Assembly (NCBI GenBank): GCA_013813565.1
Contig: JACCRK010000290.1
Span: 1 to 35,074, forward strand
Length of the DNA: 35,074 nucleotides
Direction: 5' to 3'
DNA from: Herpetosiphonaceae bacterium
GTDB lineage: Bacteria > Chloroflexota > Chloroflexia > Chloroflexales > Herpetosiphonaceae
A program made the translations under genes and the position numbers. Within the stretch, counting starts at the first letter, position 1. Every line of letters starts with the position of its first letter. Shown piece after piece: positions 5,402-31,814 of this stretch. The notes under the pieces are model-generated. The model was not told the DNA's origin. It did not search any database and worked only from the letters and a program-made list of their open reading frames with translations.

Positions 5402-8400
5402 TCAGCGTCCCCGACCTGAGGGGGCTGGATCGCGGCTGGCCAGCAGCTGCAGCGGGCGGCTGGCGGTGGGTTCTGGCTTGCCCGCCGAGCTAGGCGGCTG
5501 ATCGACCAGGCGAACCCGCCGATTATCGCTATCGCCAAGGTAGAGGCGGCCGTCTGGCGCTACGGCCAGCCCGATATAGGCCGAGATCCGAGCCTGGGCG
5601 GGATCTCCGCCATCGCCGGCGAACCCGTAGCTGCCGTTTCCGGCCACAGTGTGGATGAGGCCGTCCGGCGTGACGCGGCGGACGCGATAGTTGCTGTAGT
5701 CGTTGATATACACGCTGCCATCGCGGCCAACCGCCAGATTGTATGGTCCGGCCAGGCGGGCCTCGGTCGCCAGGCCGCCGTCGCCAGCAAACCCGTAGCT
5801 GCCGGTGCCGGCGACGGTTGTGATGATGCCGGCTGCGTCGATCCGCCGAATGCGGTGGTTGTCCCGATCGGCAATATACAGATTGCCGAGGGAGTCAAAG
5901 CCCAGCCCACTCGGCTGCGCCAGTGTTGCGGCGATTGCCGGGCCGCCATCGCCAGCAAAGCCATAGTAGCCCGTGCCGGCAACCAGCGTAATCCGGGAAT
6001 TCCGGCTCATTCGATAGACCTGATTGTCCCGGCTGAAGTACACGCTGTCATCGCTGCCGATCGCCAGGCCGGCAATGAGCGAATACCCGATTACTGGCGA
6101 TGTAATGATCCCGTTGGGGTCGATGCGCCGCAGGCGCGTGTAGTCGGCGATATACAGGCTGCCATCGTTGCCAAAGGCCAGCGCATTCAGCTGGCTGAAG
6201 CCTGCCGCAGCGGCCGGGCCGCCATCGCCACTCGAGCCATAGGCGTTCATGCCGGCAACCGTGGTGATCACCCCGGTCGCGTCGATCCGCCGAATGTGCT
6301 GGGTGGAGCGGTCAGCGATATACACGCGGCCGGCCTGATCAATCGCGAGTCCAACCGGGCTGCCAAGCTGCGCCGCTGGGGCCGGGCCACCATCGCCGGA
6401 AGATCCGTAGGTGCCATTCCCAGCAAGGGTATTGATCACGGCCCCGCTAGCCGGCAGATCGGTGGCGTCGAAGGTGCGCTGATTGACGCTGTTCGCGGTC
6501 AGCAGGCCAACGCTGGGGGTGAAGATTTCGCCGCCGGCCAGCAGGTTGACCGCCGGGGTGCTGCCGTGATCGGCGCGCAGAATGGCGTAAAGCCGGTAGC
6601 GGCCCGCCTGATCGGTATAGCCATGGGTCGTCAGGTACACATCGTCGCCGGCCAGCCGAACCGGGTAGTTGGTCAACGTGATGCCGGCGCTGCTGGATAG
6701 CGTGCCACTCAGCTCAAGCGTGGTTGGGCTGATCGCCAGGTCGTGGTTGAAGGTTAGGTGCTGCAGCGTCGATGTGACAATCTCGACCACCTGGCTGCCC
6801 CACGGACCGTCAAGGGTGTACTGGATCTGCAGCTCGCCCACGGCGGCCTGGTGGTTGACGGGACAGGCGAACGACCCGGAGCGGCCCGTGGCGGTGGTGC
6901 AATACTCCCCTGCGTTGAGCTTGATGGCGATAGTTGTCTGCTGGTTGTCATCAAGGACGAGCTGTGGAATGCCGGCGTGGCGAACCTGGCCCTGGATTCC
7001 CAGGCCGCCGATCGCGTGGGTCCGCTGATTCAGCGCCAGAGGCGTGAGGTCGCTGAAGACCGCGCTATCAACCAGCAGGCCGTCGTCTGTGGCAACGGTG
7101 AAGGTTAGGCGCGTGGTTGCGACCGGATTGAGCGTCGCAGTGATGACATACCGGCCCTGTTCATCACTGTAGCCCTCAATATCAGCGTAGGGATCTGCGC
7201 TGACAACCTCGATCGTGGCATCCTGAACGGGTTCGCCAGTGGCGCTGCGAATAGTTCCACTAACCTCAAGCGTCGTCATCGTTACCGGCAGATAGGTATA
7301 GATATACTCAAAGCTGCCTAGATCACCGGCGGCAATGGTCGCGGTAACTGCTGCGGTGCCCCACTCGCCGCTGTAGGTGTATTCGGCCTGGGTGGCGGCG
7401 GTGGGAAGGTTGATTTCAGCACAGCTGTAATAGCCACTGGTCGCAGCGGTTGCGCACACCTCCTCGCCGGCGATCCGCACCGCAACCGCCGTCTCGACCC
7501 CGCCAAGGCTGCCACCACTGAACTGATTGATCACGCTGCCTTCAAGGACAATCGTCCGGCCATCAAGGATGATATCGTGGTCGGCCACACTGGGGATGTG
7601 CGGATGGAGGTTGATCGAGACCGTCTTCGATACAATGGCGGTATCTAGCTTGGCAACTAAGCTCAGGGTGCCGGTGATCGGTTGCATAATCCAGGGATAG
7701 ATCGCATAGCGGCCATTTTCAGCGCTTTGAGTGCGGTATGGGTGGGCGAGCCGGGCGCTATGCGCCTCCACGGTCACCGACTCAACCGGGACGCCGGCTG
7801 GGTCAAGCGTGCGTCCGGCCAGCACAACCTGGGGTGCGCCGACGCGGCGGATGCCGCTGGTCTGGGAATCACCGATCAGTAAGGCGCCATCGCCGGCAAT
7901 GGCCAGGCTTTGCGGCTGCACCGCCGCAGCGATGGCAGGAATACCATCGTTGTGCGGATAATCCGCGCTCATAATGCGCCAATCGCCACCGCCGCCGCCA
8001 GGGTAGGAGCGCCCATCGCCGGCAACGGTGTGAACGACTCCGGCCGGGGTCAGACGGCGCACGCGGTAGTTATAGGTATCGCTGATATACAGGCTGCCAT
8101 CCGGCCCAAGCACCACATCGTTGGGGTCCGCCAGCGTTGTTTCGCTGCCAGCCAGGCCCTCGCCGTTGTAGCCATAATCGCCATTGCCGACCAGCGTGGT
8201 GATGTTGCCATCGGGCGCCACCTGGCGGATGCGCTGATTATACCGATCGGCGATGTACATCGTTCCATCGGCTGCGATCGCTACGCCATAGGGGTAGTAC
8301 AGCGCTGCCTCAGTGGCCGGCTGATCGTCGCCGTCAAAGGAGTAGCCGCCATCGCCAGCCACCGTGGTGACGATACCATCGGGCGCGATCCGCCGAATCC

Positions 8401-11400
8401 GGCGGTTACTTGTGTCGGCCAGATACAGGCTACCGTCCGGGCCAAAGGCCAGCCCTTCAAGATAGGTAAAGCTGGCGTTGAGGGCGGGTCCGCCATCGCC
8501 GGAAAATCCGTACTGGCCATTTCCGGCAACGGTGAAGATGAGCCCGTTCGGCGTGATGCGGCGCACGCGATACCCTGCCGCAACATACAGGCTGCCATCG
8601 GGGCCAAGCGCCAGATCCCTGACATTGGCCAGCTGGGCAGCGAGCGCCGGGCCGCCGTCGCCGCCATCGCCATACTGACCGTTCCCGGCGATGACAGTCT
8701 GGCTGCCATCGGGCGCCAGGCGCAGGATCTGGGTGTTGGTCGAGTCAAAAAGGTAGCTGGAGCCGTCAAGCCCGGCGGCCAGCGCCACCACGGTCGAGGT
8801 AAATGGCCTGGTATCGATAACGTGGTTGACCGCATAGGTGCTGGTCAGCGCAACCGTCCGCTCGTTGAGGGCGTTTGGCGTCAGGCCAGCCAGATTGAGC
8901 GGCTGAAACGCGCCACCAACCGTGATATTGAGCAGCGGACTGACAACTCCCACCCTGAGCAGGCCCTCGATCCGATAGTCTCCAGCTTCATCGGCGTAGC
9001 CGCTGAGGGGCAGATGCAGCCCGGCGCCGGTCACCTGGATCAGCGCGTTGGCCTGCGGGGTGCCATCGGCGGCATTGACGGTGCCTTGCAGGCGCAGGGT
9101 TGTCGGCGCAATCGCCAGATCATAGGCATACATGCCGCCTGGGTCGGTTGCTGTGACAACGCTGGTATAAACAGCGCTGCCCCACGACCCGCTGACGGTG
9201 TACTGGAGATTCAGGGGCAGCGTGGAGGTCAGGTTGTGGCCTGGGCAGAGATAGCTGCCAAAGCTACTGAAGGTGGTTGTCTCGCACAGCGTTGTCGTGC
9301 CGGTTTTGATCACAACCTGGGTGTGCCCATAGTCGCCAACGGCTGCGCCGGCCAGGGCTGTGTTGGTCACCTGGCCGCGAAACCCGATCGGCGTGAAGTC
9401 GTAGGTTCGCTGATTGAGGGTGTTGAGGTCAAGATCGCTGAAATTCGCGGCGCTTTCAAGCTGAATGCCGCTGCCAGACAGCTGATACTGTAGCGCAACG
9501 GCGCTGATATTCGCCCGCAGCACAACATCAACACTGTACCGGCCGGCTCCGGCGCTGGTTCCCTGCCCCATCTGGAAGACGTCCGCGCCGCCAGCCTGCA
9601 CCAGCACGCCGTTGACCGGATCGTTGCTGGCATTGCGGATGGTACCGCTGAGGCGCAGCATGGTCGGAGTTACGTTGATTGGCTGGTTAGGCGAAAGATA
9701 GCTGCCAATCGCCCCGGCCGGGATCGTCGCATCGGTGGTGGCACTGCCCCAGGTTCCGCTCACGACGTAGGTTACCGCAAATGCTTGCGCGGTGGCCTGA
9801 ATTTGCGGGCAGCCATAGACGCCTTCGTGACTGGTGGTGACACGACACAGAACCTCAGCGCCCCGGCGAACTTCGACCAGGCTTGGCGGCCCCTGGAGCG
9901 GCTTCCCGACCAGCGTGTTGCTGAGGATACCGCTAAACGCGATCAGGCGATTATCCAGCGTAAAGGGCACCGTAATCTGCTGGAATGTCAGCGGGGTGAC
10001 AAAGCGCTCGACCGACTGGCTCAGCCAGGTGTTGCCAACTGATGCCTGCATGGTAAAGGTGACGGTCTGGGGCTGAGTGATGATTAGCTGTCCATAGGCG
10101 CTATAGCGACCTTGAGCATTGGTGCTGGTACTGACGCTACGCTGTAAGCTCCAACTGCTGGCCGAGACACTAACGCCGCTCAGCGGGGCGCCCTGGCTAT
10201 CTACGACGCTGCCGCTGAAGATGACGCCAGGCGCAAAGAGGCTGCGGATGCGCTGGTTGCTGTAGTCGGCAACCGCGATCCGTCCGTCGGCGCCAACGCC
10301 TAAGCCTTGCGGGGAGGAAAGCCGCGCTGCAGTGGCGGAGCCGCCATCGCCAGCGTACCCATTGGTTCCCGAGCCGGCGACGGTGGAGATAGCGCCTGAC
10401 GGGCTAACGCGCCGGATCACCCCATAGCTACTATCGGTGAGATACAGGCTGCCATCCGGCCCAGTCACGACATCGATTGGATTCGCAAGGCGGGCGCTGG
10501 TGGCCGGGCCGCCATCGCCGGTATAGCCCGACGTGCCGGTGCCAGCGATAGTGCTGATGATCCCGTTTGGCGCAACTTTCCGAATGCGCCGATTCGAGGT
10601 GTCGGCAATGAAGAGACTGCCATCGGCGCCGACTGCAACCCCGCTGGGGTAGTAGAGGCGGGCCGCCGTCGCCAGACCGCCGTCGCCGAGATACCCGGCG
10701 GAGGCGGTGCCGGCCACGGTGGTGATAATGCCATCGGGCGCGATCCGGCGGATGCGCTGGTTGGAGTAGTCGGCAACGTAGACGCTGCCGTCCGGGCCGA
10801 CGGCGATCCCAGACGGAGAGTACAGCTGGGCGGTGGTTGCCAGGCCGCCATCGCCGCTGTAGCCACCGGTTGTGCCGGCTACGGTGGTGATAATGCCATC
10901 GGGCGCGATCCGCCGAATGCGATGGCTATTATAGTCAGCAATGTAGATGCTGCCGTCAGGTCCAACGGCAATGCTATATGGGTACAGGCTGGCGCTGGTC
11001 GCCGGGCCACCGTCGCCGCTGTTGCCGGAATAGCCGTTCCCGGCCACGGTGGTGATTACGCCGTTGGGCGCAATCTTGCGCACCCGGTAATTCGAGCTGT
11101 CGGCAACGTAGAAGCTGCCATCGGGGCCAAACGCAACATCGCGGGGATAGTAGTGGCGGGCGTTGGTCGCCTGCCCGTTATCGCCAGCCATGCCGGCGCT
11201 GCCATTCCCGGACACCGTTTGAATCAGGCGGCCGATCGTTGGCGCACTGTTGATATCGAAGCTGTGCGTGTTCAGCGCGTTGAGGGTCAGGGGTGCGACC
11301 CTGGTGGCATAGACCTCGCCACCAACCAGGAGCGACAGGTCCGCGGCGGTTTGGCCTTCCGCCAGGATGAGATCGAGGGTGTAGCGCCCATTGTCGTCGG

Positions 11401-20400: not shown

Positions 20401-23400
20401 CGTAGGCGTGAATAACGGTGAGATCGATCCGGATATCGCGGGTGTGGTTGACGATATCTTGCGAGCCGTCAATCGTGGCCAGCTCGCTGAAACGCTGGCT
20501 GCCCCACAGCCCGCTGAGGTCGTAGGTGACGCTGATCGCGCCGACTGAGCGGGTGGTGCCGACGCAGACATAGGTTCCGTCAAGGGCGGTTTGCGTGACA
20601 CAGGACGTGCCCAGCGCCGTGATGATCTGGTCGGACTGAATCGCAACGATCGTCAGGGGCGTCTCGGTGTTGTAGTCATTGGTGACATCGCCGCGGAAAT
20701 AGACCGTGCGGGGCGTATAGATCAGGTCGGTTTCAAGCGGGGTCGCTTCGTACAGCGTCGCGCTAAACGGTCGGGTCTCCAGCACATCGACGTTGCGGTA
20801 GGTCACCCGATACTGGAGGGTGCCCGACAGCACGCCGTACGGCAGGATCACGCCCATCCGGTACATGCCCTCGTTGTTGGTGCGCACCGTGCTGGTTTTG
20901 CCGGCCACCTGCACCTGCACCGTGGTATTGAGCATGGGCGCCCCGGAAGGCCGGGCGACAAAGCCGCTCAGGTCAAGCGCGGTCGTGCGCACCAGCAGAT
21001 CCTGGGGCACCCAGCGGCGGCCGCCGAGCGGCGCCAGCGGGGTGGTGTGGGTGAACACGTCGACGCCTGACTCAGTGGTTACCTCGTAGACCAGCACCAG
21101 CGTGGTCGGCGCCACGCTATCGACCTCGGCGCGACACTCGGTGGTGCCGCCGCCAGGGACCCGCACGCGGTAGGCGTCCGGCTGATAGTAGTCGATCCCG
21201 GTCTGGGCCTCGCACAGCAGCCCCAGCCCTGGTGACGAGATGCGCACCAGCGCATTGGTGATTGGCAGATCGAGCCGTTCGTCGATCACGCGCCCGACTG
21301 GAATAATCATGCTGCCGCGTACCGTGAAGGTGCGGCTGACGTTCAGCGGAGCGCCAACCTCGGCGCCGGCGAAGGGGAAGCTGCCGCCGGTAGTGACGTT
21401 GAGGTACCGAACGGCATACTCCAGCGTGCCGATCGAAATACTGTCGTCCAGCGGCAGATACATGGTGTACTGCCCGGTCACGTCGGTCAGCGCCGTGAGC
21501 TCGGTCAGCGCCTGCGGGCTCTTAACCGCGACATCAGCCCCGGCGACCGGCTGGCCATCTGGCCCGCGCACGTAGCCGTTGAGGTACAGCACAGGGGTGG
21601 CCAGCCGTAGCGGGGTGACCACGCGGAAAAGCTCGCCTGCGCCCCGATTGCGCGGGTCGACCGTGACAACTGTGGAGGTCAAAATGGTCGTCGGATCACG
21701 GCCGACCAGGTCGATGCGCACATCGAATGGCGTCAGATCTTCGATCGGCGCCTCGCAGCTGTAGGTGCCTTCGCGCAGCCGATCGGTGGTCTCCTTGCGG
21801 GGATCGATCGTGCGAATCACGGTGCCGAACTCATCGACCAGCGCTTTTGGATCGACATACACCAGCGTGGTCACATCGCACGAGTTAAACTGCGGATGGG
21901 GCTGGACCGGCTCGATCAGGACACGGGTTCCCGGCGCAGGCCTGGCCTCATCAAACAGAAACGACACCCGGCCCTGGAAGGCGAGCAGCACGCCGGTCAG
22001 CACCAGGTCGTGGGAAACCACATTCAGGGCGTTCTGGTTGAGACCGCTGTACGGCCGGCTGCGAATCGCATGCACCATGAGGGCGTTGGGATCGGTGCGG
22101 AACTCGGGGTTGAACGAGATTCGATAGGTGAGCGTGCCGTCGACAATCGCGTTGTCGAGCATCATATAGGTGGTGTAGGCGCCAGTGCCGGTGGTGGTCG
22201 TGTACACGCTGGTAAAGCCCGCCGCCGTCTGGGCGTTAATCCGCAGCTCGGCGTTGTACAGTGTCTGGCCGGTCTGGTCGCTCAATTTGCCGACCAGCTG
22301 GAGGGTCGTCGGGGCGACCGCGAAGTTCTGCTCCAGCACGGCGATCCCGCCGGCCGGCGGCAGGCTCGTGATGCGAATCTCCTCGCTGGCGGCGCCGCGG
22401 CCGCTAATGGCAACCTGGAGGGTGCCGGTCTGCCCATTCGATGGCACCCGACAGATATAGCGCCCAAAACGGTCGGTCCAGGTAGTGCATGCGGCCAGCT
22501 CGCTGGACATGATCGTAATCTTGGCGCCCGGAACCGGCAGCCCTGGCACAAGGCTGTTGCTGACGACACCCATCACATTGTAGAAACAGATCCCGCTATC
22601 GATAACCTGTTGGGCGCTGCGGCCCAGGAACAGCTCGATCGCAACATTGCGAATCGCGATCTCGTCGAGGTTGCTGGCGTCACAGGTGTTTTGCAGCAGA
22701 ATGGTGGCCTGCTCCATATATGGGGCCAGCTCGGTGCGGCTGGGCGGCTCCCAGTCCTGGCGCTTGTTGTAGCTCCACGGGCCTTCGCCGAGGTCGTAGG
22801 TGAAGAGCGATTTGGCGGTCTCCGTGATGCGCCAGCCATTGGCCAGATCAAAATCATCGAAGGCCAGGGTGCCGTCAGGCATCGCGGTATCATCGGCGAT
22901 CAGGCCGTTTGGCCGCCCCATCATGCCAATGTGGGTGTCGTCCTGGGGTACCAGCGCCTCGAGGTTGAGCCACTTGCCATACATTTCATCGATGCGCAGC
23001 CGATACTGGCGATAGCTGATCTCGATCACCGTCGGGCTGTTAACTTTAAGATCCACCTCGCCAAAGCTGTACACACCTGGGCGCAGCTCGCTCATTGCCA
23101 GGTGGTTGATCAGCGGTCGATTGAGCGTTCCGGCGCGGAACTCAAAGATCATGCCATCGAGCTCGATCGCGAAGGTCGTGTTCCAGGCGGCCCACTCGGC
23201 GGTCTGAATGGTATCGGTGATCAGCAGAGTGTTGGTGATCTGCTCATGGCGCGCCTGGACGGTCACGCCGCCATGCTCAAAGCCGGGCCGTGGGCCGAGA
23301 TACTGGAACTCGCCGAGCGCAAAGCTGTCAAAGCGCCGGCCATCCATTGTCGAGATATGCGGGTCGTTCTCGACCTTCCAGTAGCAGGTGCCCTTGCTGA

Positions 23401-26400
23401 TTCGCTCGTAGGCGCGCCAGCCGCTGCTGCTATCCCAGACAATCACCCCGACGCTGCTGTCGGGGTCGGGATATTCCCAGTGCCCGGAGAAGATGTTCTC
23501 TTCCAGAATGCGTTCGCAGAGCGTCTCGCGCGTGCGGGTGTCCCGGCGCTCCAGCGTATCGCAGGTTCGATAGCGCAGCGTGAACGGCACCTCCACCCGC
23601 CGAACCCGTGGATACTGGCCCTGCGCGTTGGGCAGGCCAGCCCGCGCCTCCACCCAGATCAGCTGACGCTCAGCGGACCCAGAGCGAAATTCGTGGCTGA
23701 GCGCGGCGGTCAGCACCCCGCCGGTGCCGGTCACAACGACGGTCTCATCGCTGAAGAACAGGACCATCTCGGCGAGATTGCCCTGGCTGTCCATCGCCTG
23801 AGCGCTGACTGCAAGCGTCAGCAGATCGAGCGGATCGGTGACGACGTCACAGGCCCAGATCAGCGGCGCCCCATAGCTGTCGCGAAACGGCGTGTTGGCA
23901 AGCACGGACGGCAGGGTGATCTCAAGCTTAAGCTCGTTGCAGGTCGCCTGAAGCTGGCCCAGGTAGCTGCTGGCCGTCAGCTCGGCGTACATTCGGTTGA
24001 AGCCGACCAGGTGGAAGGAGATTTCTTTATCGGCCAGGTTGCACATCTCGGCGTCAGGAATCAGCGTGCCGACCAGCTGGCCGCCGACGACCGCCAGCTC
24101 GGCAACCGGTCGAATGGTGAAGTCGATGTCTTCATCGTCGAGATAGTACAGGCGGGCGCCGGTCAGCGGGTACGCCAGATTGGCGCTCAGCGCAGCCGTC
24201 ACGCGAATCTGGTCGCCAACCCAGATTTCGCTGGTTGGCGCGCCGTTGAGGCTCAGGCTGATGCTGGCCCGATCCAGCGCCTGGTACAGATCGGTCGTTG
24301 CCGAAGCGGCAGCCGGTAGATCGAACGTCGCTGCTGTCGCAACGCCCAGCGAGCGCAATACCTCGGTCAGCCCGGCGGGGTGCAGGGTACCGGTCTGTTC
24401 GGTCTGGGTTTGCCCAAGCGGGACGAATTTACGATCATCGGGGTCAAGGATATTCGACCAGACGACCTCGTCGCTGCTGGCCCAGCGGGTACGCCAGCCG
24501 AGCTGTGACTGGGCCTCAAGCGTGGTGTCGGTCACAGCGGCGATTAAGGTTTGGTGGCGGGCGGTGATGGCCGGGAACTGTGCGCTGAGGCCGGGATTGT
24601 GCAGCACATCGAATAGCCCGCCCAGCTGCTCGATGGCGACGGCGCCGTCTAAGCGCCAGCTAAGGCTGCTATCAACCCGCCAGCGGACATCCGCAGGTAT
24701 CTCGGGCATGCTTGCCGCAACGTTGAGCGCGCCAAGGCTGGCCTGCCACGTCGAGAGATCACGCACCGCCAGGGTGGTGTTGACGCGCTGGAAACTAAAG
24801 CCAGCCGCCAGATCGCCCGACCCATTGCCGCCCTGCACGGTGAGACGCAAGCCCGGTTGCCCATCGATCTCCATGCGCCCCGCCAGGCCCAGCGCCAGCT
24901 TGACCTGTGGCCGCGGGGTGAGGTGGAAAAACGCCGGCAGGGTTGTTGGCAGCTCAATGGCGGCGGGAGCTTCTGCCGCCACGCACTCAAACCCGCCGAT
25001 CCCCTGGGCCGCAGCCAGCAGGTCGAATGAAGACCAGGTTAATTGCGGCTGAGCGCCGGCCAGGAATCGCCCCGCCTGAATCTCGCCGGCGCTGATCCGC
25101 AGGCCGGCTTCCATCCTGGTGTGCGGGGTGAGGGTGGCGGCCCCAATAATCATGTGCCCCCACTGACCAGCGGTCTTGGCGACACAGGTGGCTAGCGGCG
25201 CGGCGTCGGCGTCATCCAGGCCCGTGACCAGGCGCAGCTGCGCGGTGTTGCCTTTGGCCGCTGTCTCGAGCTTGAGATAGGTTGAGATCGGATAGCTTGA
25301 CGTAATGCCGGACTCGGCGAGCCGATCAAGGCTCAGATAAAGATCGAGGTTGTGAAACACCTGATCGAGGGCCAGGGTTTCGAGCTGGACGAGCGTGCTA
25401 TCGCCACGGCTGGTGATCGCCCGGACCCGGCCGAGGATCTGCGAACCACCCATGCCAACCAGCAGCGAACCTACCGGTGGGGCGGCGCCGCGCACAACGA
25501 TCGGGAAGGTGGCGCTAATCGCTTCGGTATGGTCGAAGGTCTGGTAGAGCGGCAACAGATCGGCCTCGGTGAAGTCGCCAATCACGAGATGGCCGGCGCT
25601 ATCAAGCGGATAGCGCGTCAGTGGATCGATGTGGGGTGGCACGCCGGTCGGCGGATAGATCACGGCGCTATCTGCCAGTGGAATGGCGCCCGGCACCAGA
25701 TCGGCTACAACAACTGGCACCAGCGGCGCTTGCATGGCAGGGATATCGCGATTGCGGGCGCTGATCAGCGCGCTGCCGACCATGCCATTGCCCCGGACAA
25801 CGATCTCGCGCGGGCTGATCTGAGTGAAACTAACCACGGCAGTTGCTGTCAGCCAGCTGGACTGGACGATCATCCATTCAAATTGAATGCCGGCTGGATC
25901 TATCTCGCGGCCCTGGCTATCGTAGGCCACCACCCGCAGCGTTTGGGTCATTGCTGGGCTGGTCAGCAGAACGCTGGCCGGCTCAACCTGAAACGTCACG
26001 CGCTGATCGACGATGCTTACCAGCGCAACGGCGCTGCCGCCACGCCCATCATCAACGCGATAGCGCAGCTGATCCGGGCCACGATAGCCATTGTTGCGGG
26101 TGTAGGTCAAGATCGTACCGTTCAGCCCGGTAACGCCTTGAGCCGCCGGCTCGCTGATCGTCAGACTGAGCGAATCACCATCTGGATCGGCGCTGAATGC
26201 CGCCAGATCGATGCTACCGCTCGATGCATCGCGCAGGATAATCGTGGCGCCATAGGCAACTGGCGCCCCATTGGAGTGTGCGCCAACCTGAATCACGCTT
26301 GTGGCGCTGGCGGATCCACCGCGCCCATCGAACACGCGCAGCAGCGCGGAATAGGTGGCGGAGTGGTGATAGACGTGCTGAATTGCCAGCGTTTGCGAGA

Positions 26401-27961
26401 TCGGCCCGTGCTGGCTGGTTCCATCGCCGAAGTCCAGGGTATAGGTCAGCGGATCAGCGTCGGCATCGCTGGCAGTGATGCTCAGGGTGGTTGTTAGTGG
26501 GGCCGAACCGCTGGCCGGTGTCGCAGCTAGCGTGGCGGCTGGCGCGGTATTGGCAGGCGCCACGACCGTGATCGTGATCTGGTCGGTCGCGGTTGCCCCG
26601 TGGCCGTCGCCGACAACAACCTGGGCGCTGAACGATCCGGTGCTGGTGTAGGTATGCGCGTACAGGAAGCTGGCGGTAAGCAGATCGCCCGAAATCCAGG
26701 TTCCATCGCCGAGATCAAGGGTATAGGTCAGGGGATCGCTGTCTGGATCGGCGGCGGTAAAGGTCAGGGTCGTGCTGAACGGCGCCTGGCCGCTGGCCGG
26801 CTGGGCGCTCAACGCCACCGTGGGCGGAAGGTTCTCGGCTGGGGTATCGCTGACGATAATGGTCTGCTGCCGTGTGGTCACGCCTTGATGACCATCGCCT
26901 ACCGTTATGCGCGCCAGATATGTTCCATTCGACGTGTACTCATGGCTTGTGGTAAATGGCGTATGGGCGACGATTCCCTGGGTGCTTAGCCCATCGCCAA
27001 AATCCAAGGTATAGGTTAATGGATCAAGGTTGGGATCGCTGGCTGTGGTCACCAGTGCCACCAGCAGCGGCGCCCTACCCGTGGCTGGCTGCGCGGTCAG
27101 GGTCACCAATGGCGGCAGGTTTGTGCCGCCACTGGTGACCTGAATCAGCTGGTGCGCAGTCGCCGCGCCGCCCTGGGCGTCGGAAACGATCACTGTGGCG
27201 GTAAACGTCCCCGTCGAGGTATAGATATGGGTTGGGAGCCACCCGTTAGTCGGCGTGGTACCATCGCCAAAATCCCATTCCGCCGTAAGCTGATCGGCGT
27301 CAACATCGCTAGCCGCTGCGCTAAAGGCAACACTGAGCGGCGCAGCGCCGGCTGTCGGCTGCGCACTGATCGTCACCGTTGGATCATCGTTGACTGGCTT
27401 GACGACGAGATTGACGCGACCGACATAGGTTTGTTGCGGGCTGGTGATTGTATAGTCGAGACGATCGGTGCCGCTAAAGTTCAGGGTTGGCGTATAGATC
27501 ACCACCTGATCGCGCAACGTGGCGCTGCCATGGCTCGGAAGTATTTGAATGCTGTAGGTAAGCGGGGTTGTCGAACTCAAAGGGCTGGTCGGCAGACCGA
27601 TCTGCGCACTGTGATCTTCATCGATGTCGATCGTACATGCTGGCAAATCCGTGGAGGGCGCTGCCAACAATCCCCCGGCAGTAGGCTGCTCCAGGAGCCG
27701 GGCTGCCCCACTATTGGACATGACTAAGGGCAGATAGAGCTGGTTGATTGGAAACGCTGAACAAGGGATTACGGTCTGAACGTTCTGGGCAGATCCATCT
27801 TCTGTCAGGGCTGGCGCTGGATTGAAGGCCGTGTCACGTGGGGTTTGGGCGGATATCACCGCTGGCCACTGTGGAACAAGCATTGTCAGAAGAAGGAGTG
27901 CATGGATAACTCGCCGCAAACGACTTGGACGCAGCGATAGCCCAGATCCCACAACCGGCAT
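5402..27961 (-). CDS. Giant secreted modular protein, 7519 aa (PKD, VWD-like, A/B modules, three NHL propellers)
   Basis: Start chosen at ATG 27961: it follows GGGAGG and gives an N-terminus with Arg residues, then a hydrophobic core (VIHALLLLTMLVPQWPAVISA), a clear signal peptide. The frame also allows a TTG at 27973, but the ribosome site would then lie inside the coding region. Approximate residues: cadherin-like 108-188; PKD domains 188-278, 280-368, 373-468 and 468-560 (W/LDFGDG or LDLGDG cores); cadherin-like 561-650; unassigned 651-1521; VWD-like 1524-1711; alternating A (carboxypeptidase-regulatory-like) and B (Cys-pair, SGxWG) modules from about 1790 to 5576; then propellers at 5577-5912, 6385-6708 and 7175-7488 separated by A-B-A-B-A sets. 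The tail is short, polar and rich in Pro and Arg, with no membrane anchor or sorting signal seen. No catalytic motif is visible. Likely an extracellular adhesin or matrix protein; that role is inference. Confidence 0.95.
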   Translation of the reverse strand: MPVVGSGLSLRPSRLRRVIHALLLLTMLVPQWPAVISAQTPRDTAFNPAPALTEDGSAQNVQTVIPCSAFPINQLYLPLVMSNSGAARLLEQPTAGGLLAAPSTDLPACTIDIDEDHSAQIGLPTSPLSSTTPLTYSIQILPSHGSATLRDQVVIYTPTLNFSGTDRLDYTITSPQQTYVGRVNLVVKPVNDDPTVTISAQPTAGAAPLSVAFSAAASDVDADQLTAEWDFGDGTTPTNGWLPTHIYTSTGTFTATVIVSDAQGGAATAHQLIQVTSGGTNLPPLVTLTAQPATGRAPLLVALVTTASDPNLDPLTYTLDFGDGLSTQGIVAHTPFTTSHEYTSNGTYLARITVGDGHQGVTTRQQTIIVSDTPAENLPPTVALSAQPASGQAPFSTTLTFTAADPDSDPLTYTLDLGDGTWISGDLLTASFLYAHTYTSTGSFSAQVVVGDGHGATATDQITITVVAPANTAPAATLAATPASGSAPLTTTLSITASDADADPLTYTLDFGDGTSQHGPISQTLAIQHVYHHSATYSALLRVFDGRGGSASATSVIQVGAHSNGAPVAYGATIILRDASSGSIDLAAFSADPDGDSLSLTISEPAAQGVTGLNGTILTYTRNNGYRGPDQLRYRVDDGRGGSAVALVSIVDQRVTFQVEPASVLLTSPAMTQTLRVVAYDSQGREIDPAGIQFEWMIVQSSWLTATAVVSFTQISPREIVVRGNGMVGSALISARNRDIPAMQAPLVPVVVADLVPGAIPLADSAVIYPPTGVPPHIDPLTRYPLDSAGHLVIGDFTEADLLPLYQTFDHTEAISATFPIVVRGAAPPVGSLLVGMGGSQILGRVRAITSRGDSTLVQLETLALDQVFHNLDLYLSLDRLAESGITSSYPISTYLKLETAAKGNTAQLRLVTGLDDADAAPLATCVAKTAGQWGHMIIGAATLTPHTRMEAGLRISAGEIQAGRFLAGAQPQLTWSSFDLLAAAQGIGGFECVAAEAPAAIELPTTLPAFFHLTPRPQVKLALGLAGRMEIDGQPGLRLTVQGGNGSGDLAAGFSFQRVNTTLAVRDLSTWQASLGALNVAASMPEIPADVRWRVDSSLSWRLDGAVAIEQLGGLFDVLHNPGLSAQFPAITARHQTLIAAVTDTTLEAQSQLGWRTRWASSDEVVWSNILDPDDRKFVPLGQTQTEQTGTLHPAGLTEVLRSLGVATAATFDLPAAASATTDLYQALDRASISLSLNGAPTSEIWVGDQIRVTAALSANLAYPLTGARLYYLDDEDIDFTIRPVAELAVVGGQLVGTLIPDAEMCNLADKEISFHLVGFNRMYAELTASSYLGQLQATCNELKLEITLPSVLANTPFRDSYGAPLIWACDVVTDPLDLLTLAVSAQAMDSQGNLAEMVLFFSDETVVVTGTGGVLTAALSHEFRSGSAERQLIWVEARAGLPNAQGQYPRVRRVEVPFTLRYRTCDTLERRDTRTRETLCERILEENIFSGHWEYPDPDSSVGVIVWDSSSGWRAYERISKGTCYWKVENDPHISTMDGRRFDSFALGEFQYLGPRPGFEHGGVTVQARHEQITNTLLITDTIQTAEWAAWNTTFAIELDGMIFEFRAGTLNRPLINHLAMSELRPGVYSFGEVDLKVNSPTVIEISYRQYRLRIDEMYGKWLNLEALVPQDDTHIGMMGRPNGLIADDTAMPDGTLAFDDFDLANGWRITETAKSLFTYDLGEGPWSYNKRQDWEPPSRTELAPYMEQATILLQNTCDASNLDEIAIRNVAIELFLGRSAQQVIDSGICFYNVMGVVSNSLVPGLPVPGAKITIMSSELAACTTWTDRFGRYICRVPSNGQTGTLQVAISGRGAASEEIRITSLPPAGGIAVLEQNFAVAPTTLQLVGKLSDQTGQTLYNAELRINAQTAAGFTSVYTTTTGTGAYTTYMMLDNAIVDGTLTYRISFNPEFRTDPNALMVHAIRSRPYSGLNQNALNVVSHDLVLTGVLLAFQGRVSFLFDEARPAPGTRVLIEPVQPHPQFNSCDVTTLVYVDPKALVDEFGTVIRTIDPRKETTDRLREGTYSCEAPIEDLTPFDVRIDLVGRDPTTILTSTVVTVDPRNRGAGELFRVVTPLRLATPVLYLNGYVRGPDGQPVAGADVAVKSPQALTELTALTDVTGQYTMYLPLDDSISIGTLEYAVRYLNVTTGGSFPFAGAEVGAPLNVSRTFTVRGSMIIPVGRVIDERLDLPITNALVRISSPGLGLLCEAQTGIDYYQPDAYRVRVPGGGTTECRAEVDSVAPTTLVLVYEVTTESGVDVFTHTTPLAPLGGRRWVPQDLLVRTTALDLSGFVARPSGAPMLNTTVQVQVAGKTSTVRTNNEGMYRMGVILPYGVLSGTLQYRVTYRNVDVLETRPFSATLYEATPLETDLIYTPRTVYFRGDVTNDYNTETPLTIVAIQSDQIITALGTSCVTQTALDGTYVCVGTTRSVGAISVTYDLSGLWGSQRFSELATIDGSQDIVNHTRDIRIDLTVIHAYGRVSTPAGDPLRNVEIRISGDDVYRISPGQTNASGDYSFYVVMKPRGGGQLSGVLNYFIGYGEEGRIHNVDFSAQVNQATPLTKDFILNMRVVTFSGAVKNGWVAPNRSDSGIYGTRVVVTAPSIGYLCEYAVLDRYRQTSYSCSARIFTDQSFEVRYDLSGNWGTAILTDTVTHLPGPGSQITFAKDLTVRPTTVQLNGRVSDRDGQPIKEVKIIVDGSAFLPHYVDDRLEHTVSVTTDATGYYTAHAVLGQGLSATSLDYMVKYAFGDQTYALTKTASLETAPAELTILRANFAYPYRKVAFKGRLQNATSPNNRIKGTLLIVSPTVNRALCRIPAAGSEFIDTEKDYECAALVDSDEPLVLNYRVEGRFCRPGLGGSGCPIFRNQGFNDPFKYYGESNWGEFRLNNQTAPAGATMVVQDLPALPRVVSLNGTLTSSDGSPLPNASLTMTSYSIVHEGFVTVRAATNASGFYSTTVVLGADVTRISVRYAIQVNGISSIAEKNFELGVYDQRSTATNDIQISARNLVFRGSLVNSLLAGPGTWSSNNQLVIASPTLGRLCLINNLGGSYSCATQLASASPFDVVYTIYADWGTAVITDHIDLLPAPGQLGYWDKNLAVSPTMLRIQGQADYEADGEVGPLANTGITTAWPGIASSPLVSSLWRTASTNASGNFDVYVILRDTNQSLSGTLSLVFATSPRLPKTVHFTALEGQLNLVDMGSFTLVKPYIEPSTARTIILRGNFRNSLAPAIGEADTVAWYQLSSPTHGQICYYDENQGGPLKEYGIVRDNFNCVVVVDNAEPFEVTVNAWGPHGMAERVFEVTNIPAIGGSRTIFEDVQLTPTTFHLAGVIAQPNGPPIGLAQIAAKLKINGLVVGAASDVADQNGIYDLYINISPWLQGLIDVEYTITVDGIVTEYRLPNRSFRQRQINEVWQTWPFERRRVRFVGRVTNAFVPGLGVPGLMYITSPDFWSSQFCDAEMDVQTGYYTCDALLDDGDPIDINYRINGEWGLSDRTGVVTNVLGVGQTTLVERDFTVTPTTLHLQGTLTDPYGKRLANAAITVRGDYVGHTGQGGVRGFTVYTDAQGNYNAYIVLRPNVTQGDLEFEVAYYNIKQSFTRHFFGLNRNALNFSRQDLEISFRKAVFVGRARNTYAPGIGMLGDLTISNPSRGALCTAAIDDGSGHQYNPELYVGEYTCIAPGVTTDPFTVSYRLSGDWGSATWTDEIQFGTVGSVVTTTKDLPVSPTTLRLSGVIRDGVGTPLAGALIQVGGNNISASQPPLAIRTNAQGVYTGTIILKSGVPTGTLNYAITYGDSSGTALVPFAVPLDQLSVVTRDITFTERVVQLSGIVGNRLTGNRPLGSNRIQVTDAGGGELCAVSSLSNGSYSCTVRVLDMAAIPIRYHISGDWGSQTLAGSIPAGAAGSTTNVPQTLGVAPATLLLTGIVEDGTNQALSGATIALSSSGFSTTANSLSLVTTAQGTYSGTVVLKANSLAGTISYRVTYNGIAATIGGSYSAQAEQLTPVSQRIRFTTRNIDFGGQISNAFAPYMQLRNTQVQVSLPGGDQLCVAATNATGNYSCRAQVLSQSSLDVTYTASGDWGTLVVSGTIPPGSVGSTSSVARSLEARPTTVLLRGVIRESSDAPLAGATVEVASNSLSNAVPSASITSNAQGAYDGAVILKAGITHPTLRYQVAYAAAEMTLEEQKVVALNALTPVNQDFRFTNRSLDMRGVIHNTLVPSATLAQTQVRISTPNHPNACSPQTNALGQYVCQTSISDSGTFVATINVSGDWGTRSFTQSVTMGALGSLTTISRDFGVAPTTLRLTGRVHDGASNPISNASVAVSTAGASNANAGTTALSDAQGAYTLTLILRNGVTSGNLHYAVSYSAGQATLDTTFSAAAQALTPISRDISFTARTVTWSGRVINRLTGQGVNSTQVAISTPASGTLCTPTTWSDGSYSCSRQVFESGSFVGTYSLSGGWGSDVITATVPAGAPGSTTALPKNLLIAPTTLLVNGYVRDGQSAPLVGATVTIESTLLHGSETVALSTNAQGFYSATLVLKSGVSSGVLSYRVNYQGIQSTESVNFSAAASQLTPISRNLTLSSRTVAFSGRVLNSLYPQMNIANTQVIIRSSSLGRLCSVATTSSGYSCNVQVFDTESLAILYDLSGDWGTATVTGTVAPGATGTTTAAVNNLLVAPTTLLLTGSVRDGIDAPLSGATVRIESARLLAPGFVETTTNATGAYTVPAGLKLNESQGALSYRVVHNGVTLNDTATFTASAGALTTVSKNFTISNRQITFTGYVRNTLAENARLNSNSVAISAAGTGALCSDTYLYDPWYGYYTYYDCAATVQNSAAFSVTYTIQGDWGTAIVTGTVPAGGSQTVNYDLGVQPTTVRLAGVVQDSAGRRLANAGTSAQGSIFSTYNLQTDTTDTNGEYSFYGVLRNTITTATLDLIVNLNSELRQAIVVAAPANALTTITRTVTFDLRTVQFYGYVKNNLVPDWNIQANQIQVRDSQGNQLCQANVYWYNSYYSCSATVLTTAPFSVTYAIYGDWGLLLNAATAPAGTVGSATSFSRDLTISPTTVRLAGTVTDQDGTPAPSVSLSTSGTMLSGNSVNLQSTSTNASGEYVMHAIVRSGFTSGTLNLHYSRNSMDFTAPIAVDVISGTLNVITTGLVFDKRRTNLTGSIRNGYAASLLLPVDTVAVGVPEQGVLCSNAWNGSTSYSCTGFITTTQAISVSYRPAGAWGTQTVTGTIPAGAGSTAINVPFDLLVYPTTLHLTGTIRSYDGSALAGAYVQISAPELLNPVSGYTDAQGHYSFYVTARANAASTTLRYSVQANGTTIDASRSVTLIQRQLNPVSHDLGAQERLIFFQGRIRNSNADNQLLADFGRTQITLQRDATTLCSTTTYQFSGSYSCSAVISATGTFEPFDVRYALNGPWGSQTVSATLDPGTLNGSFVRDITVAPTTLRISGIVRNAGNNPILSTYVDVSGPGVHNPVGGYTDDNGRYTLDLILAEGQTAADLSLLVGGEVYATRVAPLTLNALNTHSFDINSAPTIGRLIQTVSGNGSAGMAGDNGQATNARHYYPRDVAFGPDGSFYVADSSNYRVRKIAPNGVITTVAGNGYSGNSGDGGPATSASLYPYSIAVGPDGSIYIADYNSHRIRRIAPDGIITTVAGTTGGYSGDGGLATTAQLYSPSGIAVGPDGSVYVADYSNQRIRRIAPDGIITTVAGTASAGYLGDGGLATAARLYYPSGVAVGADGSLFIADTSNRRIRKVAPNGIISTIAGTGTSGYTGDGGPATSARLANPIDVVTGPDGSLYLTDSSYGVIRRVSPSGAISTVAGSGTNGYAGDGGSATAARLSSPQGLGVGADGRIAVADYSNQRIRSLFAPGVIFSGSVVDSQGAPLSGVSVSASSWSLQRSVSTSTNAQGRYSAYGQLIITQPQTVTFTMQASVGNTWLSQSVERFVTPLTFQQITVPFTLDNRLIAFSGILSNTLVGKPLQGPPSLVEVRRGAEVLCRVTTSHEGVYGCPQIQATAQAFAVTYVVSGTWGSATTDATIPAGAIGSYLSPNQPINVTPTMLRLSGTIRNASNDPVNGVLVQAGGADVFQMGQGTSAGAGRYSVDVVLRANISAVALQYQLSGSGIQLESAANFSDLDLNTLNQRTYDFTPIGFRGQVTNTALAGAAVGDYGHTQVVIKTGTTTLCETTTFSSFGSYLCPGHNLTSTLPLNLQYTVSGSWGSAVYTSVVTATDPGGMYAYDLAIAPTTLRLQGTVNAADGTPQANALIQVTGAGLHLPLSGYADEAGDYRIEGLLRVGVVSPLLNITVGGAFQPLNLAGLTPNALNERTVALTSTYAVNHVIDTRPFTSTVVALAAGLDGSSYLFDSTNTQILRLAPDGSQTVIAGNGQYGDGGDGGPALAAQLANVRDLALGPDGSLYVAAGYRVRRITPNGLIFTVAGNGQYGFSGDGGPALNASFTYLEGLAFGPDGSLYLADTSNRRIRRIAPDGIVTTVAGDGGYSFDGDDQPATEAALYYPYGVAIAADGTMYIADRYNQRIRQVAPDGNITTLVGNGDYGYNGEGLAGSETTLADPNDVVLGPDGSLYISDTYNYRVRRLTPAGVVHTVAGDGRSYPGGGGGDWRIMSADYPHNDGIPAIAAAVQPQSLAIAGDGALLIGDSQTSGIRRVGAPQVVLAGRTLDPAGVPVESVTVEAHSARLAHPYRTQSAENGRYAIYPWIMQPITGTLSLVAKLDTAIVSKTVSINLHPHIPSVADHDIILDGRTIVLEGSVINQFSGGSLGGVETAVAVRIAGEEVCATAATSGYYSCAEINLPTAATQAEYTYSGEWGTAAVTATIAAGDLGSFEYIYTYLPVTMTTLEVSGTIRSATGEPVQDATIEVVSADPYADIEGYSDEQGRYVITATLNPVATTRLTFTVATDDGLLVDSAVFSDLTPLALNQRTHAIGGLGIQGQVRHAGIPQLVLDDNQQTTIAIKLNAGEYCTTATGRSGSFACPVNHQAAVGELQIQYTLDGPWGSQVVEIVTSTLQHLTFNHDLAISPTTLELSGTLSSSAGITLTNYPVRLAGDDVYLTTHGYTDQAGRYRLYAILRADHGSTPAVNLLAGGEIFTPSVGLLTANSVNQRTFDATDLPASGAVINTLAGNGTYGSSGDGGPAPAAQLGSPVGLAIDQAGRVYIADRSTQHIRRIDATGVITTVAGMNAYGSSGDGGPAAAAGFSQLNALAFGNDGSLYIADYTRLRRIDPNGIITSPVIGYSLIAGLAIGSDDSVYFSRDNQVYRMSRNSRITLVAGTGYYGFAGDGGPAIAATLAQPSGLGFDSLGNLYIADRDNHRIRRIDAAGIITTVAGTGSYGFAGDGGLATEARLAGPYNLAVGRDGSVYINDYSNYRVRRVTPDGLIHTVAGNGSYGFAGDGGDPAQARISAYIGLAVAPDGRLYLGDSDNRRVRLVDQPPSSAGKPEPTASRPLQLLASRDPAPSGRGR
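5500..6440 (-). repeat. NHL propeller 3 of the giant protein (six blades)
   Basis: Six blade-like units; four carry SGDGG/AGDGG loops followed by a DGxxYIAD-type strand and RIRRI/RVRRV. Blade 3 is degenerate (no GDGG loop; SDDSVYFSRDNQVYRM). The block is followed only by a tail of about 30 residues and the stop codon. Confidence 0.85.
6441..7837 (-). repeat. A-B-A-B-A module set before propeller 3
   Basis: Five modules of about 90-95 residues. A modules carry a conserved G-RY core (ENGRYAIYP, EQGRYVITA, QAGRYRLYA) as in carboxypeptidase-regulatory-like sandwiches. B modules carry a Cys pair (VCATAATSGYYSC; YCTTATGRSGSFAC) and the WG motif (SGEWGTA; DGPWGSQ). The order and individual sequences match the set before propeller 2. 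Confidence 0.75.
7838..8810 (-). repeat. NHL propeller 2 of the giant protein (six blades)
   Basis: Six units. The first is short (GLDGSSYLFDSTNTQILRL). Blades 2 and 3 keep GDGGPAL with DGSLYVA/DGSLYLAD; blades 4 and 5 have diverged loops (FDGDDQPAT, NGEGLAGS). The sixth has an enlarged Gly-rich insertion (SYPGGGGGDWRIMSADY) before its strand. Confidence 0.85.
8811..10224 (-). repeat. A-B-A-B-A module set before propeller 2
   Basis: Same order as the set before propeller 3. B modules read VLCRVTTSHEGVYGC with SGTWGSA, and LCETTTFSSFGSYLC with SGSWGSA. The last A module (GAGLHLPLSGYADEAGDY) is clearly related to the last A modules before propellers 1 (GPGVHNPVGGYTDDNGRY) and 3 (GDDVYLTTHGYTDQAGRY). 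Confidence 0.75.
10225..11235 (-). repeat. NHL propeller 1 of the giant protein (six blades)
   Basis: This is the most regular of the three propellers: six units of about 55 residues with SGDGGPAT-type loops, GPDGSxYxAD strands and RIRRIAPDGIITTVAG linkers. The regularity makes it the best template for defining blade boundaries in the other two. Confidence 0.9.
11236..22595 (-). repeat. Long alternating A/B module array (about 19 A and 19 B modules)
   Basis: The array alternates strictly. A modules start after PTTLxLxG, contain TNAQGxY or a variant, and end in LTPVxRDIxF. B modules start with VxNxL, contain a Cys pair around GxYSC, then SGDWGxx, a PAGA-type turn, and end at the next PTTLxLxG. 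One A+B pair is about 190-200 residues. The first three B modules (near the VWD-like domain) are divergent and lack the WG motif; those from about 20600 downward are more regular. Copies differ widely at DNA level, so the expansion is old. Confidence 0.8.
22830..23395 (-). other. Von Willebrand factor type D-like domain within the giant protein
   Basis: The segment begins at GTCYWKVENDPHISTMDG, which matches the GDPHxxTFDG opening of VWD domains, continues with RRFDSFALGEFQYL, and ends with a GMMGRPNGLIADD / PDGTLAFDDFDLANGW stretch equivalent to the closing GxxGNxNGxxxDD...NSW element. VWD domains bind calcium and mediate assembly of extracellular polymers in animals. The bacterial role is not known from this sequence. 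The usual C8 Cys-rich follow-on domain is not seen. Confidence 0.75.
26285..27400 (-). repeat. Four tandem PKD domains
   Basis: Four units of about 90 residues, each with a P-x-x-L/F-T/S opening (SGxAPLTTTL type), a D-x-D-P-LTYTLDFGDG core and a closing strand ending in V-DG-GG. WDFGDGT, LDFGDG, LDLGDGT and LDFGDGT are the four cores. PKD domains are common rigid spacers or surface-binding modules in secreted bacterial proteins. The array is flanked on both sides by cadherin-like Ig folds (NFSGTDRLDYTI before it, GYRGPDQLRYRVDDGRGG after it). Confidence 0.85.
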
Positions 27962-28282
27962 AAAACCTCCCAAACAGCGTTAAGGTAACAGTGAGTCTCC
28001 ACCGCGTGACATGCAGTAGCATCGATGTGGCAAACGAGACGTCTTGTGGCCCCAACCTGTGGCGGCGTGCCACGAAAACTGGGGGTATTTCAAGCGGATG
28101 GTATTGTGGTGTGAATACTTTGGCAGGATGCCCTTGTTTTTCACGCTAATTGAGGAGACATCATGGTTCGATCTCGCCATCCTGCGAATCAGACCACGAA
28201 TTCAGCCCCGCAGGGATGACGATGTTTTAGGGCAGACAATAAAGTTGACTTGGGTTATTTAGGGATCGTATGGATTAGGCGC
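27962..28282 (-). other. Long 5' leader of the giant operon
   Basis: About 315 nt lie between the predicted start of transcription (near 28276) and the giant gene's ATG. I recognise no known riboswitch core. An 8-bp perfect inverted repeat (GCAGGATG at 28123-28130, CATCCTGC at 28178-28185) could close a 47-nt loop in the leader, and a small GTGGC/GCCAC hairpin lies at 28059-28073. No convincing leader-peptide start with a ribosome site was found on the minus strand. Confidence 0.4.
27966..27970 (-). promoter_or_regulatory. Ribosome binding site deciding the start of the giant gene
   Basis: GGAGG lies 4 nt before the ATG at 27961, a tight but usable spacing. It overlaps the codons that would follow the upstream TTG at 27973, so it argues for the ATG as the real start. 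Confidence 0.6.
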
Positions 28283-30973: not shown

Positions 30974-31806
30974 TACTCGATCCAGTCAACGGCGGCCGCG
31001 ATCCTGGTCTGCGGGCAGGCCAGCGCCTGGGGCTGGGCCTCAGGCGCCCAGGTGTTGCTGTGCCAGATATTGACCATCGTGTAGGCTGGGATCTGCGGGA
31101 TGCACTGCCCGCGGTAGTGCCACAAAACAATCCGCTGGCCCGTCTCTGGGTGGACAATCCACCACGTCACCGACTGTGGCGCCCAGTGAAAGCCGTACTC
31201 GTAGAAGCGGGCGGACGCATCGTAGCTGGCGATCGCCGGGATCTGCGCCGGCTGGCTGGCCTCAGGCTCACTGGCGAGATCGCGGTGGGTGGCCGGGTTG
31301 AAGTCGGTCCCAAAGCGGGTGTACTCGATCGTCCCGCTGGCCAGGTTGATCTTGCGATAGACCCGGCGGCTGCCCTGGGTGGCCAGGTCGTAGCTGGTCC
31401 ACACGCTGAGGTAGATCGACTGCGGCTCGGCGGCCAGCCACTCGATATCGATCTCGCTGTTGTCGGCCATGCCGCTGGCGTCGCTGTCGCTGCCGTCGTT
31501 GAAGTAGGTGAAAAAGCCGCTGATCACGCCCTCCTGCCTGGTTGAGCAGGCGGCTGCCCGGAGTCGCGCCGCGTAGGTGCCGTAGAGATAGCGCTGGCGC
31601 GACTTGAGATTGGCGCCCTGATCGGGGCTGGCGGCGTGGCCAGCGCTCAGCTCCAGCCGCACGACCCGGCCATTCAGGGCCAGCGGTTCGGCGCAGTTGG
31701 CCCGGACCTGGGCGCTGGCGCTGGTCGAATACCAGTCGAAGGCTGGCGAACAGTGGAGATCGCGAGCGAAATCTTCTAAAAAACCTACCGATTCGACGTA
31801 GCTCAT
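30910..31806 (-). CDS. GH16 family beta-glucanase-like protein lacking a signal peptide
   Basis: A 298-residue catalytic-domain-only protein of the GH16 (laminarinase/lichenase) family, which cleaves beta-1,3 or beta-1,3-1,4 glucans by a retaining mechanism. The catalytic motif EIDIE gives the predicted nucleophile Glu118 and acid/base Glu122, with Asp120 between. It is very similar to the catalytic domain of the neighbouring GH16 gene (shared GVISGFFTYFNDGSDS, EPQSIYL, RKINLASGT), so the two are tandem paralogues. The start at ATG 31806 is supported by GAGG 8 nt upstream; a TTG at 31824 would include that site. The N-terminus (MSYVESVGFLEDFARDL) enters the domain almost at once and has no signal peptide. 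The C-terminal tail after DWIEYQPL is Ala/Ser/Pro-rich and overlaps the regulator. Either cytoplasmic, exported by another route, or a decaying duplicate. Confidence 0.88.
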   Translation of the reverse strand: MSYVESVGFLEDFARDLHCSPAFDWYSTSASAQVRANCAEPLALNGRVVRLELSAGHAASPDQGANLKSRQRYLYGTYAARLRAAACSTRQEGVISGFFTYFNDGSDSDASGMADNSEIDIEWLAAEPQSIYLSVWTSYDLATQGSRRVYRKINLASGTIEYTRFGTDFNPATHRDLASEPEASQPAQIPAIASYDASARFYEYGFHWAPQSVTWWIVHPETGQRIVLWHYRGQCIPQIPAYTMVNIWHSNTWAPEAQPQALACPQTRIAAAVDWIEYQPLEPVLAPASSPATTSART

Positions 31807-31814
31807 GCTGCTTT

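What the first reader, a model, noticed from the sequence alone, without database searches (positions are those of the whole stretch)
5402..27961. 7519-residue secreted protein with an unusual domain order
One uninterrupted frame of 22.5 kb with a clear signal peptide combines cadherin-like, PKD, VWD-like, about 48 A/B sandwich modules and three NHL propellers. I know of no named family with this order. If extended it would be a very long fibre, a candidate for adhesion, gliding, sheath or prey contact. The absence of a membrane anchor or sorting signal leaves its attachment unexplained.
Basis: partly seen in the sequence, partly recalled or inferred. Interest (0 to 1): 0.72.

Follow-up and report, generated by a model that had tools for sequence, protein, structure and literature searches.

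The report
Giant bacterial stalk protein with propeller heads
A 7,519-residue secreted protein from an uncultured relative of Herpetosiphon is a real, intact gene whose nearly 50 building blocks are kept in the same order in a second genus, and it belongs to a rare family of giant proteins with a shared base and stalk but different heads, most likely used to bind surfaces or neighbouring cells.

Summary
One minus-strand frame (27961-5402) encodes 7,519 aa (793 kDa) with a Sec-type signal peptide, cadherin/Big and PKD domains, a ~880-aa unmatched region, a VWD domain, 38 alternating sandwich modules, then NHL-ABABA-NHL-ABABA-NHL: 25 A + 23 B modules and three 6-bladed propellers. It is not an assembly join: OHK22 ('Ca. 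Anthektikosiphon siderophilum', another Herpetosiphonaceae genus) has a 7,764-aa ortholog, 51% identical over 7,452 positions, with the same module order and the same downstream gene; nearly all of its modules 1-42 best-match the same position in the window protein. The order is not unique either: it defines a small family (VWD plus BA array) found in 5 of 82 genomes of the order, with five members in OHK22. Base and stalk are shared; C-terminal heads differ (NHL, LVIVD/PD40 propellers, HYDIN-type Ig, none). The NHL heads resemble those of bacterial teneurin-like proteins but lack the YD shell and toxin. Best explanation: a secreted, fixed-length adhesive fibre with interchangeable binding heads. 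The six same-family genomes that look like Herpetosiphon lack it, so a general predation role is unsupported. Attachment remains unknown. New variant of a known kind.

The parts
5402..27961 (-). Giant gene, 7,519 aa, 793 kDa, pI 5.0
   Evidence: Open frame; ortholog 7,764 aa in OHK22, 51% identity over 7,452 columns
27966..27970 (-). Ribosome-binding site GGAGG, just upstream of ATG
   Evidence: Sequence read
27848..27961 (-). Sec-type signal peptide, aa 1-38 (RLRR / VIHALLLLTMLVP / AVISA|Q)
   Evidence: Read by eye; most hydrophobic 19-mer of the protein starts at aa 18
26012..27568 (-). Cadherin/Big_9 + four PKD + Big_9, aa 132-650
   Evidence: Pfam PKD_4 E 1.3e-45, Big_9 E 3.3e-24, Cadherin_5; same order in ortholog
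23369..26011 (-). Middle region aa 651-1531, mostly beta, no family match; 47% identical to ortholog
   Evidence: No Pfam hit, no PDB sequence relative; AlphaFold pLDDT 51 with only 3 sequences
22580..23368 (-). VWD domain aa 1532-1794
   Evidence: Family profile vs FCGBP VWDs E 6.7e-40; Pfam VWD in 7 of 9 relatives; 67% identical to ortholog
23357..23365 (-). Asp1533-Pro1534-His1535 of the VWD GDPH motif (NDPH here; GDPH in most relatives)
   Evidence: D, P, H invariant in all nine aligned members
11276..22573 (-). Stalk: 38 alternating B/A beta-sandwich modules, aa 1797-5562
   Evidence: Module HMMs; 2 Cys in 22 of 23 B modules and 0 in all A modules of the whole protein; model pLDDT 86 for BABA-NHL
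10220..11203 (-). NHL propeller 1 (6 blades)
   Evidence: TEN_NHL/NHL; bacterial teneurin-like protein 9ifo E 1.5e-140; 60% identical to ortholog
8909..10219 (-). A-B-A-B-A spacer 1
   Evidence: Module HMMs
7835..8794 (-). NHL propeller 2 (6 blades)
6533..7828 (-). A-B-A-B-A spacer 2
5495..6415 (-). NHL propeller 3 (6 blades)
5405..5494 (-). 30-aa tail; the ortholog instead has one more A module and a proprotein-convertase P domain
1..5343 (-). Downstream partner gene (runs off the contig): lipase-like GHSQGG N-terminal region, Ig-like parts, its own NHL propeller; conserved next to the giant in OHK22
   Evidence: 50% identity over all 1,781 aa to the gene 88 bp downstream of the OHK22 giant; NHL by Pfam; the lipase reading rests on the motif only

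Best explanation
A secreted fibre protein of fixed length. Shown: signal peptide; conserved N-terminal part (PKD/cadherin, unmatched region, VWD); alternating BA beta-sandwich rod with a conserved Cys pair in B modules; three NHL propellers at the C-terminal end, separated by equal ABABA spacers; a family in which base and proximal stalk are shared while the C-terminal ends differ. Inferred: the N-terminal part is the base that holds the fibre to the cell envelope or extracellular matrix (no covalent anchor seen), the B-module cysteines form one disulfide per module and stiffen the rod (roughly 150-190 nm if fully extended at 3-4 nm per module), and the propellers are binding heads held out from the cell to stick to a surface, matrix glycan or neighbouring cell. 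The VWD Asp-Pro-His site may self-cleave and remain tethered by disulfide, but cleavage is unproven here.
For: Same order and count in the ortholog; its modules 1-42 all best-match the same position (in the reciprocal test 22 of 25 A and 21 of 23 B modules do), although modules within the protein are only about 30% identical to each other (max 49%). So the array was in place before the genera split and its length and order have been kept. Paralog C169 matches positions 1-19 of the stalk one to one, and C196 matches 10 of its 12, then the C termini diverge. Different heads: NHL (window, C62, G022), LVIVD/PD40 propellers (G020), HYDIN/ASH-type Ig (C169), none (C240, C126). VWD profile and BA profile occur in exactly the same 5 of 82 genomes (the VWD genomes first found). 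BABA-NHL model pLDDT 86, separate beta domains, low pTM 0.55 as expected for a flexible chain.
Against: No binding partner, expression or localisation data. No anchor, so cell attachment is unexplained; it could be released into the matrix. The middle region was not modelled well. The orientation (N-terminal base, C-terminal heads) rests on conservation pattern only. NHL propellers can also be enzymatic or scaffold domains.
Confidence: 0.5

Rival explanations
1. Structural component of an extracellular matrix or filament sheath, not a cell-bound adhesin: several giants cross-link each other through VWD, PKD and propeller domains.
For: No anchor; several paralogs per genome (five in OHK22); VWD is the assembly domain of mucins and VWF (general knowledge); the OHK22 source was a mineral-encrusting biofilm (PMC7511795).
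Against: No C8 or TIL domains that complete the D assembly of mucins/VWF were found by Pfam; variable heads on a common stalk look more like ligand-specific binding than like a uniform matrix polymer.
Confidence: 0.25
2. Predation or contact-killing device related to teneurin-like toxins (NHL superfold delivering a toxin).
For: NHL propellers are closest to those of a bacterial teneurin-like protein, a family described as surface-exposed accessory toxins (PMC13018210); Rhs/YD proteins are encoded elsewhere in the same genomes.
Against: No Rhs/YD shell in the giant and no toxin C-terminal domain; a 30-aa tail or a P domain ends the protein; six Herpetosiphon-like genomes lack the family.
Confidence: 0.12
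3. Secreted enzyme scaffold: the propellers or the downstream lipase-like/NHL protein process polymers, the stalk only spaces them; two GH16 genes lie nearby.
For: Conserved downstream neighbour with GHSQGG motif and its own NHL; GH16 genes at 30913-33803.
Against: No enzyme family matched in the giant itself above cut-off with a plausible active site; the GH16 genes are on the far side of a divergent regulator gene and no GH16-like frame appears beside the OHK22 ortholog in the stretch read.
Confidence: 0.1
4. Assembly join or in-frame fusion artefact of the metagenome.
For: The window comes from a fragmented MAG (417 contigs) and its contig ends in a strain-variable overlap.
Against: Collinear ortholog in an independently assembled genome, module by module.
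Confidence: 0.01

Closest known systems
Bacterial teneurin-like proteins (TLP; PDB 9ifo, PMC13018210)
   Same: Six-bladed NHL propeller of the same subtype (sequence E 1.5e-140); transthyretin/carboxypeptidase-regulatory-type sandwich upstream; Ig-like adhesion domains; secretion signal.
   Different: No FN-plug/YD shell, no toxin C terminus; three propellers rather than one; a 38-module stalk and VWD not described for TLPs.
VWD proteins: FCGBP, gel-forming mucins, VWF (PMC10880436)
   Same: VWD with the Asp-Pro-His motif in the first turn; FCGBP is the best PDB match of the family profile (E 6.7e-40).
   Different: No C8/TIL/E domains found; Gly of GDPH is Asn in the window protein and its ortholog, Ser in C169; the GLCG cysteine is absent (GMMG).
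Giant extracellular proteins of Apilactobacillus (Giant1-5, PMC12863079)
   Same: Families of 3,000-8,000-aa secreted, elongated surface proteins in one lineage.
   Different: Those have beta-solenoid N termini and alpha-helical repeat rods (Giant1-3); this one is all-beta modules with propellers.
Carboxypeptidase-regulatory-like / Big domain repeat proteins (PF13620, PF02369)
   Same: A modules match PF13620, some also Big_1.
   Different: The alternation with a distinct Cys-paired B module and the link to VWD are specific to this family in the order searched.

Membership tests
VWD + BA-array giant family (defined here) | PKD/cadherin N terminus, VWD, alternating B-A array directly after VWD | tested here: met
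   Window, five OHK22 proteins, C196, G022, G020
VWD + BA-array giant family (defined here) | VWD and BA profiles found in the same genomes and no others | tested here: met
   Same 5 of 82 genomes of the order
Teneurin-like proteins | NHL propeller of teneurin type | tested here: met
   PF25021 E 5.1e-106; 9ifo E 1.5e-140
Teneurin-like proteins | Rhs/YD shell after the NHL | tested here: not met
   No RHS/YD hit in the protein; genome-wide PF05593 listing shows none in contig C118 (list truncated at the weak end)
Teneurin-like proteins | C-terminal toxin domain | tested here: not met
   30-aa tail after NHL3; ortholog ends in a P domain
Mucin/VWF D-assembly proteins | VWD domain | tested here: met
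Mucin/VWF D-assembly proteins | C8, TIL, E domains after VWD | tested here: not met
   No Pfam C8/TIL hit
Mucin/VWF D-assembly proteins | GDPH autocleavage motif | tested here: inconclusive
   D-P-H invariant in nine members, Gly replaced by Asn in the window protein; Asp and His were essential in FCGBP (PMC10880436), Gly was not tested in the section read; cleavage itself needs an experiment
Sortase-anchored (LPXTG) surface proteins | C-terminal LPXTG, hydrophobic segment, basic tail | tested here: not met
   Only an internal LPITN at aa 2232; no C-terminal hydrophobic segment
RTX/type I secreted giant adhesins | RTX calcium repeats near the C terminus, no N-terminal signal peptide | tested here: not met
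   No RTX Pfam hit; N-terminal signal peptide present
Apilactobacillus-type giants | N-terminal beta-solenoid and alpha-helical repeat rod | tested here: not met
   Modelled stalk is all-beta; N terminus is Big/PKD

The most novel reading that the evidence does not exclude
A bacterial fixed-length fibre family in which an Asp-Pro-cleaving VWD joins a conserved base to a disulfide-stiffened rod, with propeller heads exchanged by domain swapping: a bacterial counterpart of mucin/VWF-type VWD processing combined with teneurin-type heads lacking the YD shell.
Probability: 0.25. Interest if true: 0.68.

Novelty: new variant of a known kind. Interest (0 to 1): 0.5.

Why it matters
It turns an odd giant frame into a defined, testable family. 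A stalk of about 48 weakly similar modules kept position by position between genera argues that exact length and order matter. The family also places a VWD with the Asp-Pro-His site in bacteria next to an extended rod, so autocleavage can be tested outside animals, and it shows teneurin-type NHL propellers used without the toxin shell, which bears on how teneurin parts were assembled. Reannotation matters too: fragments of such genes are easily split in draft genomes (G022 and G019 carry broken frames).

Tried and rejected
Assembly join: rejected by the collinear ortholog. Recent tandem amplification: rejected, modules are about 30% identical within the protein and TRF finds only a short array inside NHL1. 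Virus or plasmid carriage: no viral relative by the VWD patterns; plasmid hits are only distant VWDs in Calx-beta proteins of Azospirillum and Nostoc at 25-26%. Teneurin toxin: no YD shell. Sortase anchor: none. Fold identity of aa 651-1531: AlphaFold with 3 sequences gave pLDDT 51, and its Foldseek hits (alpha-2-macroglobulin, RbmA and other Ig-type proteins) are not trusted. A named-genome scan found only the two closest OHK22 members; its two peptide patterns are too strict to prove absence elsewhere. A first module alignment (A6) was misaligned and not used.

Full report
OBSERVATION. The window is one whole contig (C118) of a 4.17-Mb, 417-contig genome. On the minus strand a single frame runs from ATG 27961 to the stop at 5402-5404, with GGAGG upstream. 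The product is 7,519 aa, 793 kDa, pI 5.0. By chance such a frame has a probability near 10^-96 at this composition. The N terminus reads as a Sec signal peptide (basic RLRR, hydrophobic core, AVISA|Q; read by eye, no predictor was available). After it come Big_9/cadherin and four PKD domains, then about 880 residues without any family match, then a VWD.

VWD. Pfam misses the VWD in the window protein, but 7 of 9 relatives match PF00094, and the family profile matches FCGBP VWDs at E 6.7e-40 and VWF and mucin VWDs at lower significance. Asp-Pro-His of the GDPH motif is invariant in nine members, while the glycine is Asn in the window protein and its ortholog and Ser in C169. In FCGBP, Asp and His of this motif are needed for autocleavage (PMC10880436). 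Cleavage here is therefore possible but unproven. Cys1526 before the motif and Cys1760 and Cys1792 at the VWD end are conserved, so fragments could stay disulfide-linked (inference).

STALK AND HEADS. HMMs trained on the protein itself show 38 alternating B and A modules (aa 1797-5562), NHL propeller 1, ABABA, NHL 2, ABABA, NHL 3: 25 A + 23 B modules and 18 blades. A modules are CarboxypepD_reg-like. B modules carry two cysteines (one B module, with a split match, counts one) and A modules none, in the window protein and nearly always in relatives, which suggests one disulfide per B module. A model of B-A-B-A-NHL1 has pLDDT 86 and is all-beta. The NHL closest to a solved structure is that of a bacterial teneurin-like protein, 9ifo. 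No Rhs/YD or toxin domain is present.

ORTHOLOG AND FAMILY. Its 7,764-aa protein aligns over 7,452 positions at 51% identity with almost no large gaps; the main difference is an extra A module plus a P domain at the end. All 42 of its first 42 modules have their best match at the same position in the window protein; in the opposite direction 22 of 25 A and 21 of 23 B modules do. Modules within the protein are about 30% identical to one another, so the array is old and has not been homogenised. Conservation is highest in VWD and the first half of the stalk (67% and 64%) and lower towards the C terminus, NHL1 excepted. The neighbour downstream is also conserved: 50% over 1,781 aa, adjacent in both genomes. 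OHK22 has four further members, of 5,972, 5,592, 6,068 and more than 2,707 aa; the window's genome has a second, cut by a contig end. A VWD tree groups window + C62 (99/99), then C169 (96/98), with C196 and C240 outside, so duplications predate the split of the genera. C169 shares stalk positions 1-19 in register. Heads vary: NHL, HYDIN/ASH Ig, LVIVD/PD40 propellers, or none.

DISTRIBUTION. Within the order, VWD and BA profiles hit the same five genomes of 82. In a 400-genome sample of the phylum, 7 genomes have a VWD match, the rest beyond the order being weak and partial. This does not favour a core role in Herpetosiphon-type predation or gliding.

MECHANISM. Shown: export signal, domain order, long-term conservation of module number and order, common base and stalk, variable ends. 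Inferred: rod-like shape (150-190 nm if extended), disulfide stiffening, N-terminal base, C-terminal heads as binders, possible VWD self-cleavage. The closest working analogy is a giant fibrous adhesin with exchangeable heads. Membership in teneurin-like proteins or in mucin/VWF D-assembly proteins fails on defining features (YD shell and toxin; C8/TIL domains), although single domains are related to both. Attachment is unexplained: no sortase motif, no membrane segment, no RTX system.

LIMITS. Both key genomes are metagenome assemblies of uncultured organisms. There are no expression data. The middle region is unsolved. Searches outside the phylum were limited to one pattern-based named scan, viral contigs and plasmids, so relatives in other phyla may exist. 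No paper describing this family was found in the open-access library searched, which does not hold most subscription journals.

Noticed in passing
window 1-5343 and L051 (G000:C7) 5913-6037: The downstream gene runs off the contig; contig C7 overlaps the window end by 125 bp at 92.8% identity and carries a 1,041-aa frame that looks like its continuation with a C-terminal part like the OHK22 protein (Calx-beta there). Probably a strain-variant break in the assembly.
   Followed up: partly
window 4001-5000: GC drops to 0.43 in the lipase-like N-terminal part of the downstream gene, against 0.62-0.65 around it.
   Followed up: no
window 30913-33812 (-): Two adjacent GH16 glycoside hydrolase genes, one with fn3, CBM2 and F5/8-type C domains.
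   Followed up: partly
window 28487-30973 (+): Divergent HTH + NB-ARC-type ATPase + TPR regulator upstream of the giant.
   Followed up: partly
window 34003-35052 (+): 349-aa frame that reads like a SAM-dependent methyltransferase.
   Followed up: no
G022:C140 (L032, L053): Related giant in a sister family, interrupted by an apparent frameshift in its NHL part; the following frame carries more NHL propellers and a weak P-domain match.
   Followed up: partly
G019:C250 and C142: Further VWD-BA members with broken frames (966, 1,776, 1,135 aa pieces).
   Followed up: no
G049:C169 (L024 1571-5647): This paralog's C-terminal 1,359 aa are HYDIN/ASPM-type Ig domains, a family better known from cilia proteins.
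   Followed up: partly
G049:C62 79591-82083: A 2,260-aa Rhs/YD-repeat frame lies about 8 kb from the OHK22 giant on the same contig.
   Followed up: no
G000:C3 5105-8671 (L031): 1,189-aa frame with a membrane-enzyme-like N terminus fused to an NHL propeller.
   Followed up: no
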